Source of the DNA: Pseudomonadota bacterium
GTDB lineage: Bacteria; Pseudomonadota; Gammaproteobacteria; Burkholderiales; Usitatibacteraceae
Reading direction: 5' to 3'
Length of the DNA: 64,000 nucleotides
NCBI GenBank assembly: GCA_029781595.1
Contig: JAKOWJ010000034.1
Coordinates: forward strand, 34,211-98,210
Positions 44,387 to 50,262 of this stretch are shown here, piece after piece; position 1 is the stretch's first letter; every line of letters starts with the position of its first letter. The position numbers were made by a program, and so were the translations under genes. The notes below the pieces were generated by a model. That model searched no databases. It saw nothing but the letters and a program-made list of their open reading frames with translations, and was not told the origin of the DNA.

Positions 44387-45223
44387 ATGGCGCCCGCCTC
44401 CCTCAGCCTCGCCATCGTCACGCACGCGCCGGACGAGCGCCTGCTCGCGCGCACCCTCGCGTGCGCCGCCGAGGCCGTGGCCTTCGCGCGGGAGCGGGGC
44501 ACGCTGGGCGAGGCGACGCTCTTCCTGGTGGACAACGGGCCGGAAGGGCTCGCGCCGATGCTCGCGAGCCTGGCGGAAGCCGCGCTCGCCCGCGCGCCCG
44601 GCACGGCGCTTGCCGTCCTCACCGGCCACGGCAACGTGGGGTTCGGGCGCGGGCACAACCTCGCGATCGCGCAGTCGAAGTCGGATTTCCACCTGATCCT
44701 CAACCCGGACGTGGAGATGGCGCGCGAGGCGCTGCACGAGGCGCTTGCCTGGCTCGGCGCGCACCCGGAGACGGGCGTCATCACGCCGTCGGTGCATTCA
44801 CCCGCGGGCGAGCGCGAGTACCTGGTGAAGGGCGAGCCCACGCCGGGCGTGCTCTTCGTGCGCGGGTTCGTGCCGCGGTTCCTGCGCGGGCCTTTCCGCC
44901 GGCAGCTCGACGCCTACGAGTTGCGGCACCTCGACTGGAACGAGGTGCAGTCGCCCGTCACCTACGCGAGCGGCTGCTTCCTGCTGTGCCGGCGCGCGCT
45001 GCTCGAGCAGGTGCAAGGGTTCGATCCGGGCTACTTCCTCTACTTCGAGGATTTCGACCTCACGCTGCGCCTGTCGAAGGTGACGACGCTCGCGTACCTG
45101 CCGCAGGTGCGGATCGTGCACCACGGCGGTCGGGCGGCGTCGAAGGGGCTGCGCCACATGGCGTGGTTCTACGCTTCGGCGCGGCGGTTCTTCTCGGCCC
45201 ACCGGCACGCAAACGTCGCCTAG
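44387..45223 (+). CDS. Glycosyltransferase family 2
   Basis: LSLAIVTHAPDERLL, GHGNVGFGRGHNLAI, FHLILNPDVEM, ASGCFLLCRRALLEQVQGFDPGYFLYFEDFDLTLRL. Confidence 0.9.
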   Translation: MAPASLSLAIVTHAPDERLLARTLACAAEAVAFARERGTLGEATLFLVDNGPEGLAPMLASLAEAALARAPGTALAVLTGHGNVGFGRGHNLAIAQSKSDFHLILNPDVEMAREALHEALAWLGAHPETGVITPSVHSPAGEREYLVKGEPTPGVLFVRGFVPRFLRGPFRRQLDAYELRHLDWNEVQSPVTYASGCFLLCRRALLEQVQGFDPGYFLYFEDFDLTLRLSKVTTLAYLPQVRIVHHGGRAASKGLRHMAWFYASARRFFSAHRHANVA

Positions 45224-45346
45224 CGGCGCGCGGAAATCCGCCCGCGCGTATCCGCGATTCTCGGGCGCGGCGCCTCGCGCGCCTGCCTAGCATGGGTCCC
45301 AAGCCGGTCGCGTCGTCCTCGCGCCCGGCCCATTCCGGAGGACCCC

Positions 45347-45511
45347 ATGAAGACCCTCACCGAACAGGAAGCGCTCGCCATCGCCGGCGGGCTGCCACCC
45401 GGCGCCGCCCTCGACGAGCTTCTCTTCCGGGCACCGGCCGAGCCGCTGCACGATCCCCTGGCGCTCGCCCCGCAGCCCCCCGAGGAAGGCCCGCCCTCGA
45501 GGCCCGACTGA
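45347..45511 (+). CDS. Putative double-glycine leader peptide 1 (54 aa, Pro-rich core)
   Basis: MKTLTEQEALAIAGG|LPPGAALDELLFRAPAEPLHDPLALAPQPPEEGPPSRPD; GGAGG ribosome-binding site 5 bp upstream; too short for the supplied ORF track. Confidence 0.72.
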   Translation: MKTLTEQEALAIAGGLPPGAALDELLFRAPAEPLHDPLALAPQPPEEGPPSRPD

Positions 45512-45587
45512 CCCGCGGGGCGCCACGCCCGCCCGGTCGCCCGGCGCGGCGCCTGTGTCCACGCGACCACCACCCAAGGAGAAGCCC

Positions 45588-45752
45588 ATGAAGGAGATCG
45601 ACAGGAAGCACCTGCCGGACATCCCGGGCGGCCGCACGCCAGGCGACAACGGCTGCGTCCCGTCCTTCCCCGAGCCGCTGGAGTACCCGCCGAACCCGCT
45701 GGGGCCGTTCCCCGGACCGGTGCCGGTGGAACTGCCGGCCGATCCCGTGTAG
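45588..45752 (+). CDS. Putative double-glycine leader peptide 2 (54 aa, Pro-rich core, one Cys)
   Basis: MKEIDRKHLPDIPGG|RTPGDNGCVPSFPEPLEYPPNPLGPFPGPVPVELPADPV; AAGGAG ribosome-binding site. Confidence 0.72.
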   Translation: MKEIDRKHLPDIPGGRTPGDNGCVPSFPEPLEYPPNPLGPFPGPVPVELPADPV

Positions 45753-45782
45753 CCCTGAAGCCAACCCCGAAAGGAACCGACC

Positions 45783-45977
45783 ATGAACCTGAACGACATT
45801 CCCGCCCGCATCGACATCCCCGCCATCGACACCACCGCCGCCGAGTCGATCGCCGGCGGCGGCGACAGCTGCTCGCTGGAGAGCCTGCTGCGGGTGACGC
45901 AGGACCTCACGCAGGCGTACGAGAACCTCGTGGACTTCGCCTCCCACGTCATCGGCCGGGTCGCGGGCGAGCCGTAG
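45783..45977 (+). CDS. Putative double-glycine leader peptide 3 (64 aa, one Cys)
   Basis: MNLNDIPARIDIPAIDTTAAESIAGG|GDSCSLESLLRVTQDLTQAYENLVDFASHVIGRVAGEP; AAAGGAA ribosome-binding site. Confidence 0.72.
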   Translation: MNLNDIPARIDIPAIDTTAAESIAGGGDSCSLESLLRVTQDLTQAYENLVDFASHVIGRVAGEP

Positions 45978-46034
45978 TCGCCCAACAGGACCTTTCCGCC
46001 AAGGGGCTGCGATTCGCAGCCCCTCTCCCGGGAG

Positions 46035-46862
46035 ATGGACTTGATCGCCAACGGATTCCAGATCGCCTTCCTCGCATTCGCGGCTCAGTTTCTTGCCATG
46101 CTTCTGGTGAAGGTGTTCATCTGGAAGTTCCCTGGCGCGAACGCCGAGCTGGAGCTCGTGACCCAGACGTCCGCCTGCCTCGTGGCGATCGTCATTCTCT
46201 TCGGCATCGCGCCCGTCCGGCGAATCTGCATGACGCTATTGCGGGCACCGATTCCGAGTGGCGCTTCCTCCGAGTTCGCGTTCGTGCTCGGGATGAAAGC
46301 GACCATTCCCCTGGCGGTCATCGGGGGCTACGCGGCCCTCTCCCTCCTCTTCGGAAATCCGGCATGGATCGTGGACTGGTACCCCCGCTACGACATCGAA
46401 GAGCAGTGGCAGCGCAGCTTCGCTCCCCTGGAAATCCTGCGCCTCGTCGCCATCAGCTGGATCGTGGGCCCGGTCCTCGAGGAGATCGTCTTCCGCGGAC
46501 TCATGTACCGCGCCTTCGAGCGCCAGTACGGATGGATCGTGGCAACCCTCCTCTCCTCGCTCGCCTTCGGCCTGTCGCATTTCGGGAGGATCCTGACCAC
46601 CTTCCTAGGAGCGATCCTCCTCACGTGCGTCATGCGGCGGATGGGATCGCTGCGGGCATCGATGGTCGTGCACGGCACCTACAACTGTCTCGTGTCGTGG
46701 CCGATCCTCGGGGCCGGGATCCTGAGAATGCCGGACGGCACGGTCACCGACGTGTCGACGTGGTGGCTGCACCTCGTCTGCCTGGCATTCGTCGCGGTCG
46801 CGCTGCCGATCTACCTCCGGCTCTCGCGTCACGATCGCACGCCGGTCTCCGCGAAGCCGTAG
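46035..46862 (+). CDS. CPBP-family intramembrane metalloprotease (CAAX protease/Abi)
   Basis: GPVLEEIVFRGLMYRAF, AFGLSHFGRI, VVHGTYN motifs; multi-TM. Confidence 0.88.
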   Translation: MDLIANGFQIAFLAFAAQFLAMLLVKVFIWKFPGANAELELVTQTSACLVAIVILFGIAPVRRICMTLLRAPIPSGASSEFAFVLGMKATIPLAVIGGYAALSLLFGNPAWIVDWYPRYDIEEQWQRSFAPLEILRLVAISWIVGPVLEEIVFRGLMYRAFERQYGWIVATLLSSLAFGLSHFGRILTTFLGAILLTCVMRRMGSLRASMVVHGTYNCLVSWPILGAGILRMPDGTVTDVSTWWLHLVCLAFVAVALPIYLRLSRHDRTPVSAKP

Positions 46863-46880
46863 TGACCCGGTGAACGGTCG

Positions 46881-48122
46881 ATGTTCCGGCCCGAAGTCCA
46901 CGCCGACCGCGCCCGCGCCGCGATGGGCACCATCGTGCTCATCCGCCCACTGTCCACGCTGGCGCTCACGGGCGCGGCCCTCGCGATCGCCGTCGTCCTC
47001 GCCGCCTACCTCGCCCTCGCGGAGTACTCGCGCAAGGCGCCGCTGCAGGGCACGCTGGTGCCCGCCTCCGGCGCCATCCGCATCGTGGCGCCTCGCGCGG
47101 GGCTCGTCGTCGACCGGCCGGTCCGCGAGGGCGAGCGCGTGCACGCCGGGGAGGTCCTGCTGCGACTGGCCGATGCGCGAACCGCCGGGGGCGGACGCAC
47201 GGTCGGGGAAGCGCTCGTCGCGCTCGCCGCGCGCCGCGTCGCCGCGACGAGGCGCCAGCGCGAGGAGGTCCGCGTCGCCGCCCGCCGCGAGCGCGAGGCG
47301 CAGCTCGGCCGCCTGCGGGGGCTCGAGGCCGAGGGCCTCGAGCTCGACGCGGAGATCGCGGCGATCGCGCGGCGCGAGGACCTCGCGCGGCGCTCGCTCG
47401 AACGCCTGTCGGGTCTCGCGCGGCGCGGCTTCGCCTCCGTCGCGCAGCGGCAGCAGAAGGAGGAAGAGCTGCTCGAGCTGAGCGCCCGTCGACACTCGGC
47501 CCGGCGCGCGCGCCTCGCGCTGGCGCGCGACGTCGACTCGCTGCGGCTGTCGGTGGAGCAGTCGCGGGCCGGCGAGCAGGCGCAACTGGCCGCCCTGGAC
47601 GCCCAGCTCGCCGCCCTCGGGCAGGAGGAAGTCGAGCGCGGATCGCAGGCCGACGCCGAGGTGATCGCGCCGGCTTCCGGCACGGTCGCCGCCCTGCTGG
47701 CCGAGCCCGGCCAGGCGGTCGCCGGCGGAGGCGCCCTCGCCACGCTCCTGCCGGCGGGCTCGCCGCTGGAGGCGCACCTGTACGCCGCCTCGGCCGCCGT
47801 CGGCTTCATCCGCGCGGGGCAGGACGTGCGCCTGCGATTTCCCGCCTTTCCCTACCAGAAGTTCGGCAGCGCGCACGCTCGCGTCCTCTCGGTGTCGCGC
47901 AGCGCGTTCGCGCCGGCGGACCTGGGCTTCCTGCCGCCCGACGGCTCCCGCGAGCCCGTCTACCGCGTGAAGGTCGCGCTCGACGCGCAGTCGGTGCGCG
48001 CCTACGGGCGCGACGAGCCGCTGCAGGCCGGCATGCGCGTGGAGGCCGACGTGCTGCTCGACCGCCGCCGCCTCATCGAGTGGGTGTTCGAGCCGCTGCT
48101 CGGCCTCGCCGGGAAGGCCTGA
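46881..48122 (+). CDS. HlyD-family periplasmic adaptor (membrane fusion protein) of a peptide exporter
   Basis: Single N-terminal TM; GTLVPASGAIRIVAPRAGLVVDRPVREGERVHAGEVLLRL; long coiled coil; VIAPASGTVAALLAEPGQAVAGG; adjacent to the exporter. Confidence 0.88.
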   Translation: MFRPEVHADRARAAMGTIVLIRPLSTLALTGAALAIAVVLAAYLALAEYSRKAPLQGTLVPASGAIRIVAPRAGLVVDRPVREGERVHAGEVLLRLADARTAGGGRTVGEALVALAARRVAATRRQREEVRVAARREREAQLGRLRGLEAEGLELDAEIAAIARREDLARRSLERLSGLARRGFASVAQRQQKEEELLELSARRHSARRARLALARDVDSLRLSVEQSRAGEQAQLAALDAQLAALGQEEVERGSQADAEVIAPASGTVAALLAEPGQAVAGGGALATLLPAGSPLEAHLYAASAAVGFIRAGQDVRLRFPAFPYQKFGSAHARVLSVSRSAFAPADLGFLPPDGSREPVYRVKVALDAQSVRAYGRDEPLQAGMRVEADVLLDRRRLIEWVFEPLLGLAGKA

Positions 48123-48123
48123 G

Positions 48124-50262
48124 TTGGAACCCGCCGCGGGCCTGGCGTTCGGCGGCAGGCGCCGCCTGCCGCTCTTCCTGCAGACGGAGGCGGCGGAGTG
48201 CGGCCTCGCGAGCCTGGGCATGGTGGCGTGCTACCACGGGCACCGCACCGACCTCGCGGCGATGCGGCGACGCTTCGCCGTCTCGCTCAAGGGCGCGACG
48301 CTCGCCTTCCTCATGCAGGCCGCGGGGCGCCTGCGCCTCGCGCCGCGGGCGCTGCGGCTGGAGCTGGACGAGCTGCCGCGCCTTCGCACGCCGTGCATCC
48401 TGCACTGGGATCTCAACCACTTCGTCGTGCTGCGCTCGGCCAGCGCCCGCGGCGCGGTCGTGCACGACCCGGCCTTCGGCGTGCGGCGCCTGGCGATGGA
48501 GGAGGTCTCGCGCCACTTCACCGGCGTGGCCCTGGAGCTCGTGCCGACGACGGAGTTCCGTCCCGCCGACGAGCGTCGCCGCGTGCGGCTGCGCGACCTC
48601 ACGGGGCCCGTGTCGGGCCTGGCGCGCTCCCTCGGCCAGGTGCTCGCGCTCGCGCTCGTCCTGCAGGCCTTCGCGGTGCTCGCGCCCTTCTACATGCAGT
48701 GGGTGGTCGACGGGGCGGTGGTGTCCGCGGACCGCGACCTGCTCGCGGTGCTGGGACTGGGGTTCCTGCTCCTCGCCGTCGTCCAGGTCGCCGTCTCGGC
48801 CCTGCGCTCGTGGGTGGTGCTGTACCTCGGCACGAGCCTGAACCTGCAGTGGCTCGCCAACGTGTTCACGCACCTGCTTCGCCTGCCGGTGGCGTGGTTC
48901 GAGAAGCGCCACCTCGGCGACGTGGTCTCGCGCTTCGGCGCGGTGACCACCATCCAGCGCACGCTCACCTCCAGCTTCGTCGAGGCGCTCATCGACGGCC
49001 TCATGGCCTTCGCCACGCTCGCCATGATGCTCGCCTACAGCCCGGGCCTGGCCGCCCTCGCCGTCGCGGCCGTGGCGGCCTACGCGGTCTCGCGCGCGGC
49101 GTTCTACGCGCCCCTGCGGCGCGCGACCGAGGAGCACATCGTCCACGCCGCCCGCCAGCAGAGCCACTTCCTCGAGACGGTGCGCGGCGTGCAGTCGATC
49201 AAGCTCTTCGGCCGCCAGGACGAGCGGCGCTCGCGCTGGCTCAACCTCGCCGTCGACACCGTGAACCGCGACCTGGCGGTGCAGAAGCTCACGCTGGGCT
49301 TCCGGTCCGCCAACGGCCTGGTCTTCGGCGCCGAGCGCGTGGCCGTGGTCTGGGTGGGGGCGAGCCTGGTGCTCGACGCCACGCTCACGGTGGGCATGCT
49401 GTTCGCCTTCATGGCGTACAAGGACCAATTTTCGGCGCGGGTGGCGGGGCTCATCGACAAGCTGATCGAGCTGCGCATGCTGCAGCTCCAGGGCGAGCGC
49501 CTGGCCGACATCGTCCTCGCGCCGCCCGAGGCCGAGGCGCCGGCTTGCGCGCCCGCCGTGGCCGAGGCCTCCATCGAGGCGCGCAACCTCTCCTTCCGCT
49601 ACTCGGACACGGAGCCCTTCGTGCTGCGCGGCTGCTCCTTCCGCATCGCGCCGGGGGAATCGGTGGCGATCGTCGGGCCGTCGGGCTGCGGCAAGACCAC
49701 GCTGGTGAAGATCCTGCTGGGCCTGCTGCAGCCCACGGACGGGCAGGTGCTCGTGGGCGGCGTGGACCTGCAGAAGCTCGGCACGGAGGCCTACCGGCGC
49801 CTGGCCGGCACCGTGATGCAGGACGACCCGCTCTTCGCCGGGTCCATCGCCGACAACGTGAGCTTCTTCGACGCGAGCCCGTGCCAGGACGCCATCGAGC
49901 GCTGCACGCGCCTGGCGGCCGTGCACGACGACATCGCGGCGATGCCCATGGGCTACCACACGCTCATCGGCGACATGGGCGCGGCGCTCTCGGGGGGGCA
50001 GCGCCAGCGCATCCTCCTCGCCCGCGCCCTCTACAAGCAGCCGCGCCTCCTCTTCCTCGACGAGGCCACCAGCGCGCTCGATGTGCGCCGCGAGCGCGAG
50101 GTGAACGAGGCGATCCGGGGCCTGAACCTCACGCGCATCCTCATCGCCCACCGGCCGGAGACGATCGCCTCCGCCGGGCGCGTGATCGCGCTGCAGGACG
50201 GCCGCGTGGCGCAGGACCTGCGCCGGGCGCCGGAGCCCGGGGCCGCTCAGCTCGCGACCTGA
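48124..50262 (+). CDS. Peptidase-containing ABC transporter (C39 peptidase, double-glycine peptide exporter)
   Basis: N-terminal LQTEAAECGLASLGMVACYHG (C39 Cys), HWDLNHFVVL (His), VHDPAFGVRRL (Asp); ABC TMD; Walker A GPSGCGKTT, LSGGQRQRILLARAL; TTG start. Confidence 0.93.
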   Translation: MEPAAGLAFGGRRRLPLFLQTEAAECGLASLGMVACYHGHRTDLAAMRRRFAVSLKGATLAFLMQAAGRLRLAPRALRLELDELPRLRTPCILHWDLNHFVVLRSASARGAVVHDPAFGVRRLAMEEVSRHFTGVALELVPTTEFRPADERRRVRLRDLTGPVSGLARSLGQVLALALVLQAFAVLAPFYMQWVVDGAVVSADRDLLAVLGLGFLLLAVVQVAVSALRSWVVLYLGTSLNLQWLANVFTHLLRLPVAWFEKRHLGDVVSRFGAVTTIQRTLTSSFVEALIDGLMAFATLAMMLAYSPGLAALAVAAVAAYAVSRAAFYAPLRRATEEHIVHAARQQSHFLETVRGVQSIKLFGRQDERRSRWLNLAVDTVNRDLAVQKLTLGFRSANGLVFGAERVAVVWVGASLVLDATLTVGMLFAFMAYKDQFSARVAGLIDKLIELRMLQLQGERLADIVLAPPEAEAPACAPAVAEASIEARNLSFRYSDTEPFVLRGCSFRIAPGESVAIVGPSGCGKTTLVKILLGLLQPTDGQVLVGGVDLQKLGTEAYRRLAGTVMQDDPLFAGSIADNVSFFDASPCQDAIERCTRLAAVHDDIAAMPMGYHTLIGDMGAALSGGQRQRILLARALYKQPRLLFLDEATSALDVRREREVNEAIRGLNLTRILIAHRPETIASAGRVIALQDGRVAQDLRRAPEPGAAQLAT

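What the first reader, a model, noticed from the sequence alone, without database searches (positions are those of the whole stretch)
45347..50262. Uncharacterised double-glycine peptide secretion locus: three small precursors + CPBP protease + HlyD adaptor + C39-peptidase ABC exporter
Seen directly: three consecutive small ORFs with good ribosome-binding sites, each with a GG near the end of a short N-terminal segment, then a CPBP membrane protease, an HlyD-type adaptor and an ABC transporter with an N-terminal C39 peptidase whose Cys/His/Asp motifs are intact. Established knowledge: C39 peptidase-containing ABC transporters (CvaB/LagD/PCAT type) cleave after GG in leader peptides and export bacteriocins, microcins or signalling peptides. 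Inference: this is a complete class II microcin-like or signalling-peptide export cassette. The cores resemble no bacteriocin I recognise, and no LanM, radical SAM, YcaO or other modification enzyme is visible between 44 and 51 kb.
Basis: partly seen in the sequence, partly recalled or inferred. Interest (0 to 1): 0.88.

Follow-up and report, generated by a model that had tools for sequence, protein, structure and literature searches.

The report
Three-peptide exporter with peptide-protease pair
A betaproteobacterium carries an operon that makes and exports three small peptides, and one of them belongs to an undescribed peptide family always found beside its own membrane protease, even in a distant bacterial family, which points to a secreted peptide with a dedicated partner, most likely a microcin-like weapon and its immunity protein.

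Summary
At 45347-50262 lie three small double-glycine (GG) ORFs, a CPBP glutamic protease, an HlyD adaptor and a C39-peptidase ABC exporter. The three ORFs are three of only four that pass an ATG + ribosome-binding site + GG-leader filter in the 64 kb window.

The cassette is conserved in order in its own genus and a sister genus, in different surroundings. In one close genome pair a ~400-bp divergence trough falls on peptides 2-3.

Peptide 3 founds a family no library names: GG/GA leader, one Cys just after it, C-terminal helix ending SHVIERV. It occurs in 50 of 107 genomes of a distant gammaproteobacterial family; in all 40 loci read there it lies beside a CPBP gene, with no exporter nearby. 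The CPBP follows peptide 3, not the exporter (absent from 37 other exporter loci). There, peptide 3 co-occurs with an unlinked C39 exporter (48 of 50, against 12 of 57).

Best reading: a microcin-like export operon laid out like microcin S, with the CPBP as peptide 3's partner, probably immunity. Cleavage, killing and immunity are inferred; signalling and CPBP-as-maturase stay open.

The parts
45221..45346 (+). Upstream region with blocks conserved in own genus (GAAAT ... CGATTYTCGSG ... CTAGCATGGG), likely promoter/5' UTR of the operon
   Evidence: alignment of 7 relatives; no sigma-70 consensus match
45347..45511 (+). pep1: 15-aa leader MKTLTEQEALAIAGG + 39-aa acidic core LPPGAALDELLFRAPAEPL...
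   Evidence: leader pattern M[KR]xL[TS]xxExxxx[AS]GG shared with the cargo of related exporters
45512..45587 (+). pep1-pep2 spacer, about 80% conserved, possible conserved RNA fold (weak: window z -0.6)
45588..45752 (+). pep2: 15-aa leader MKEIDRKHLPDIPGG + 39-aa Pro-rich (33%) acidic core; core hypervariable among relatives
45783..45977 (+). pep3: 26-aa leader ending AGG; core GDSCSLESLLRVTQDLTQAYENLVDFASHVIGRVAGEP; founder of a GG-peptide family with one Cys after the cleavage site and a C-terminal helix
46002..46024 (+). RNA hairpin between pep3 stop and CPBP start (about 10-bp stem), position conserved in 10 genomes though sequence changes; may tune the ratio of cargo to downstream genes
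   Evidence: window z -3.1; relative L031 z -5.6
46035..46862 (+). CPBP/Abi (Rce1-like) glutamic intramembrane protease, motifs EExxxR, FxxxH, HxxxN intact; partner of pep3
46881..48122 (+). HlyD-family periplasmic adaptor
48124..50262 (+). C39-peptidase ABC exporter (PCAT), Q-x5-C, H and D motifs present; full-length match to PCAT1 and ComA structures

Best explanation
This is a self-contained operon for a secreted peptide mixture. Three precursors are bound through their GG leaders by the C39 domain of the ABC exporter, cut after GG, and exported through ABC-HlyD and an outer-membrane channel encoded elsewhere. Peptide 3 is the ancestral, effector-like component: a ~38-aa acidic peptide with one Cys near its N-terminus and a conserved C-terminal helix. 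The CPBP membrane protease is its dedicated partner, most likely a self-immunity protein as McsI is for microcin S. Peptides 1 and 2 are additions specific to this bacterial family and share the export route. Shown by sequence: architecture, conservation, pep3-CPBP pairing, pep3-C39 co-occurrence, local replacement of peptides 2-3. Inferred: cleavage, export, killing activity, immunity.
For: Domain content and motifs. Six genes conserved in order, with different upstream genes in genus g1 and g2. Pep1 leader matches leaders of bacteriocin-like cargo beside related exporters in Burkholderiales. Pep3-CPBP adjacency in 40/40 distant loci without exporter and in L131; pair duplicated in L025 and found in another setting in L176. 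CPBP absent from 19 + 3 + 5 + 10 other exporter loci. Pep3 and C39 co-occur across the distant family: 48/50 vs 12/57, Fisher 1.6e-16; within its largest genus 36/38 vs 5/35, 4.6e-13. Pep3 and CPBP distances correlate, Mantel r 0.54. The CPBP evolves far faster than the exporter: mostly 30-40% vs 76-88% identity to the window in its own family. Between G151 and G155 identity is about 87-99% across the cassette but 60-75% over pep2-pep3. Microcin S has the order precursor - CAAX-protease-family immunity gene - HlyD - ABC, with immunity shown by experiment (PMC3316575).
Against: All three cores are acidic (pI 4.1-5.0) and not Gly-rich or strongly hydrophobic, unlike most class II microcins and bacteriocins. 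The cassette looks like a core-genome locus of two genera, whereas bacteriocins are usually patchy. In G151/G155 peptides 2-3 were replaced without the CPBP, which strict toxin-immunity matching would not predict, unless the CPBP recognises the conserved helix. The pep3 helix is its most conserved part, not its most variable. CAAX proteases in bacteriocin clusters can also process or regulate (PMC9298176). The Fisher and Mantel figures are not corrected for phylogeny, and most distant loci share one ancestral site.
Confidence: 0.5

Rival explanations
1. Cell-cell signal: one or more cores are exported pheromones, and the CPBP is a receptor, regulator or maturase, as proposed for SilX in Streptococcus anginosus.
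For: Conservation across nearly all genomes of two genera; allele replacement of peptides 2-3 resembles pherotype switching; SilX links a CAAX protease to a quorum-sensing peptide (PMC9298176).
Against: No histidine kinase or regulator in the cassette, and in the distant family the nearest neighbours are two other conserved genes, not an evident receptor. Three chemically different cargoes would need several receptors.
Confidence: 0.2
2. The CPBP is a maturation protease that makes a second cut in pep3 or acts near its invariant Cys, comparable to the myxosortase-type CPBP enzymes (MrtJ is among the closest NCBIfam models, below cut-off).
For: Catalytic motifs are intact in the aligned relatives, and EExxxR and FxxxH in 40/40 distant CPBPs; exactly one Cys in 52 of 53 pep3 cores and never none; MrtJ-like similarity; CPBP not needed by exporters with other cargo.
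Against: The pep3 duplication and the relocated pair each carry their own fast-diverging CPBP, more like immunity than a shared enzyme; pep3 has no membrane anchor of the MYXO-CTERM kind.
Confidence: 0.2
3. The peptides act outside competition and signalling, for example as extracellular structural or metal- or redox-handling peptides.
For: Acidic, one-Cys and Pro-rich cores; broad vertical conservation.
Against: Does not explain the fast-evolving CPBP, nor the localised allele replacement.
Confidence: 0.1

Closest known systems
Microcin S operon (mcsS-mcsI-mcsA-mcsB, E. coli G3/10; PMC3316575)
   Same: Order precursor - CAAX/CPBP-family protein - HlyD - ABC exporter; McsI shown to give self-immunity.
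   Different: Here three short acidic precursors; pep3 matches no library family; CPBP of 275 aa (McsI 216 aa); in a Burkholderiales genome, not on an E. coli plasmid.
Class II microcins in general (MccV, MccE492; cinful survey PMC9746304)
   Same: GG leader, PCAT, membrane fusion protein, adjacent membrane protein.
   Different: Cores of 38-39 aa, acidic, with at most one Cys; the cinful immunity size limit of 250 aa would miss this CPBP.
PCAT1/ComA-type peptidase-containing ABC transporters
   Same: Full-length sequence match including the C39 domain.
   Different: Partnered with HlyD for export across two membranes.
Abi/CPBP immunity proteins of class II bacteriocins (Kjos et al. 2010, as cited in PMC9298176; paper itself not held)
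   Same: Same protease family, next to GG-leader peptides.
   Different: Paired with one specific peptide family in Gram-negatives, convergent to it and unlinked from the exporter in the distant family.
Myxosortase-like CPBP proteases (MrtJ/JDVT-CTERM)
   Same: Among the closest NCBIfam models to the CPBP.
   Different: Below curated cut-offs (41.7 vs 75 bits); the neighbour is a leader peptide without a C-terminal membrane anchor.

Membership tests
Class II microcin export locus | Precursor with GG/GA leader | tested here: met
   Three precursors, GG conserved in the aligned relatives
Class II microcin export locus | PCAT with C39 domain and catalytic motifs, plus HlyD/MFP | tested here: met
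Class II microcin export locus | TolC-like outer-membrane factor | tested here: inconclusive
   Not in the cassette; several OEP-family (PF02321) genes elsewhere in the genome; pairing not testable
Class II microcin export locus | Dedicated immunity protein | tested here: inconclusive
   CPBP adjacent and tracks pep3; immunity itself untested
Class II microcin export locus | Sequence similarity of core to a known microcin or bacteriocin family | tested here: not met
   No Pfam or NCBIfam match to the three peptides beyond one chance hit at E 0.12
Class II microcin export locus | Antibacterial activity | not testable with these tools
   needs peptide and indicator strains
CPBP/Abi (Rce1-like) glutamic proteases | EExxxR, FxxxH and HxxxN/B motifs in a multi-helix membrane protein | tested here: met
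   model pLDDT 83, best PDB match SpdC with Foldseek probability 1.00 though E 0.04
NHLP/Nif11-type bacteriocin export (TIGR03796) | Score above curated cut-off | tested here: not met
   485 bits vs cut-off 853
Glycocin | Dedicated S/O-glycosyltransferase in cluster | tested here: not met
   Family-2 glycosyltransferase upstream only in genus g1; not found in the g2 loci
Lanthipeptide / YcaO / radical-SAM RiPP | Modification enzyme in locus | tested here: not met
   no further gene between the glycosyltransferase and the ABC exporter

The most novel reading that the evidence does not exclude
Pep3 + CPBP is an undescribed two-gene secreted-peptide system in which the intramembrane protease acts on the peptide (maturation at or near its invariant Cys, or sensing) and not as classical immunity. 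It uses a resident C39 exporter in trans in one bacterial family and has been built into a three-peptide operon in this one.
Probability: 0.3. Interest if true: 0.8.

Novelty: new variant of a known kind. Interest (0 to 1): 0.62.

Why it matters
Few double-glycine peptides outside Enterobacterales have a known partner or function. A peptide family that keeps its own intramembrane protease over two distant bacterial families, with the exporter linked in one and unlinked in the other, gives a defined pair for testing what CPBP proteases do beside secreted peptides: immunity, maturation or reception. It also shows that surveys searching only for known cores, or capping immunity proteins at 250 aa, miss such loci.

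Tried and rejected
Glycocin idea (upstream glycosyltransferase): rejected, not found in sister-genus loci. Phage or plasmid carriage: no pep3 in plasmid records or viral contigs. Search of public genome contigs with the CPBP alone found nothing. A pep3-pep2 disulfide pair: weakened, because two g2 genomes have no Cys in pep2 while pep3 keeps it. Chance ORFs: rejected. A conserved RNA structure between pep1 and pep2: some compensatory pairs, but the window's own fold is not better than shuffles. Strict pep3-CPBP co-replacement: not seen in G151/G155. Sigma-70 promoter or terminator scan: nothing.

Full report
OBSERVATION. Pfam supports CPBP/Rce1-like (2.6e-18), HlyD (1e-17) and a C39-peptidase ABC exporter (C39 1.1e-28). 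The exporter aligns over its length with PCAT1 and ComA structures. No Pfam or NCBIfam family covers any of the three peptides. A simple filter (ATG, ribosome-binding site, 40-80 aa, GG at a leader-like place) over both strands of the 64 kb returns four ORFs, three of them these.

CONSERVATION. The cassette is present in the window's genus (g1) and a sister genus (g2) of one Burkholderiales family. A named g2 member is Betaproteobacteria bacterium GR16-43; the family may be Usitatibacteraceae (my guess, not tested). Seven of the eight g1 genomes show exporter and peptides; the eighth has the exporter's C-terminal part cut by a contig end. Five of six g2 genomes have it; the sixth is 80% complete. 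Upstream genes differ between g1 and g2, so pep1 to ABC is a unit. Identity to the window is 76-88% for the exporter and mostly 30-40% for the CPBP (24% in the most divergent g2 copy, 22% for the second copy in L025). Sampling 399 genomes of the order found no convincing pep1 or pep3 outside the family (only marginal hits with E above 0.001).

PEPTIDES. All cores are acidic, pI 4.1-5.0. pep1 keeps LPPGAALDEVLYRAPAEPL-like sequence. pep2 keeps its leader but has a variable Pro-rich core. pep3 keeps one Cys and a C-terminal Y[ED]xLVDFxSHVIERV stretch, modelled as a helix (residues 32-60, pLDDT about 90 over most of it). Pairwise dN/dS was 0.08-0.18 for the exporter, 0.15-0.63 for the CPBP, 0.20-0.75 for pep3, 0.24-0.74 for pep1 and 0.41-1.27 for pep2; short genes make these noisy. 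Between G151 and G155, DNA identity is about 87-99% over the cassette except about 400 bp over pep2-pep3, which falls to 60-75%. Synonymous divergence of pep3 there is 1.35 against 0.11 for the exporter, which suggests import of a foreign allele.

REGULATION. A hairpin lies between pep3 stop and CPBP start in ten genomes, with different sequences in g2. Only some are stronger than shuffles (window z -3.1, L031 z -5.6, L025 z -1.4). Random 63-base pieces of this GC-rich window fold as well in 27% of cases, so conservation of position is the main argument.

RELATED EXPORTERS. At 51-62% identity the exporter occurs in other genera of the order (34 of 399 genomes match, own family included). Loci I read carry other GG small ORFs, some bacteriocin-like, with leaders such as MRELTISEAGAVSGG and MKDLTMEEVNDVSGG, close to the pep1 leader.

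PEP3 AND CPBP. The pep3 profile found G579, a member of a distant family (f211) of the class, and then 50 of 107 f211 genomes. f211 may be Woeseiaceae (guess from genome size only). In 40 of 40 loci read, pep3 is next to a CPBP gene; the 39 simple pairs are all convergent, ends -33 to 92 bases apart, and one locus has two pep3 genes flanking a CPBP. No HlyD or ABC relative was found in those loci, which reach up to about 6 kb on each side. All 41 cores have a Cys 1-5 residues after GG/GA (40 have just one). EExxxR and FxxxH are present in 40/40 CPBPs by pattern, HxxxN in 36/40. Most f211 loci share the same two flanking gene families, so this is mainly one old association kept over time; L176 lies in a different setting. 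In L025 a second pep3 is followed by a second CPBP. With a combined CPBP profile, none of 37 other exporter loci has a CPBP. Caveat: L068 has a membrane protein with a non-significant Rce1-like score (E 0.28).

EXPORT IN TRANS. Among 107 f211 genomes, 48 of 50 with pep3 have a C39 domain at E below 1e-15, against 12 of 57 without (Fisher 1.6e-16; within g322 36/38 against 5/35, 4.6e-13). These tests ignore phylogeny and assembly completeness. The ten C39 loci I read hold HlyD + ABC and no clear GG cargo.

MECHANISM. The most economical reading is export and cleavage by the C39 route, with pep3 as the main effector and the CPBP as its partner. Microcin S has the same order with a CAAX-family immunity protein proven by experiment. 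That CAAX proteases in such clusters may instead process or regulate is documented, and the acidic cores do not look like usual pore formers. I put antimicrobial + immunity at about one half.

NOVELTY. The export layout is known. The pep3 family, its constant CPBP pairing and the three-peptide operon were not found in the libraries and papers searched. This is limited evidence: only open-licence papers were searchable.

Noticed in passing
Own genome G000:C153 (L035, 8031-11473) and relatives L069, L071, L072: A second C39 exporter clade (47-50% identical) present across the family has nearby small ORFs with leader ...LxLVGGG and very short ends such as GDVVFA, GDVIWG, GDVIF or DVTVVIG: predicted mature peptides of only about 5-8 residues, in tandem copies in L072 (5810, 6011, 6223).
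   Followed up: partly
L067 8847-9239 and 10834-11235; L068 3000-3284 and 5029-5304 (genus g3): Exporters 55% identical to the window's lie near Gly-rich or hydrophobic microcin-like GG peptides (MRELTISEAGAVSGGNPAAGAVAAGG...), different from the trio.
   Followed up: partly
L103 (contig labelled Vicinamibacteria): Contains pep1, pep2, pep3, CPBP and the start of HlyD next to an EF-G-like gene; probably a misbinned contig of the window's family.
   Followed up: no
L149 (97-417 and 1488-1838); L147 (8435, minus strand): GG ORFs in other Burkholderiales exporter loci end in DKSGNNY/DKSGANY-like repeats, a shared C-terminal motif.
   Followed up: no
f211 loci (L170-L209): pep3-CPBP usually sits between a ~220-aa probable outer-membrane protein gene and a ~405-aa alkane-monooxygenase-like gene (both named from sequence appearance only); pep3 is present in about half of the genomes.
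   Followed up: partly
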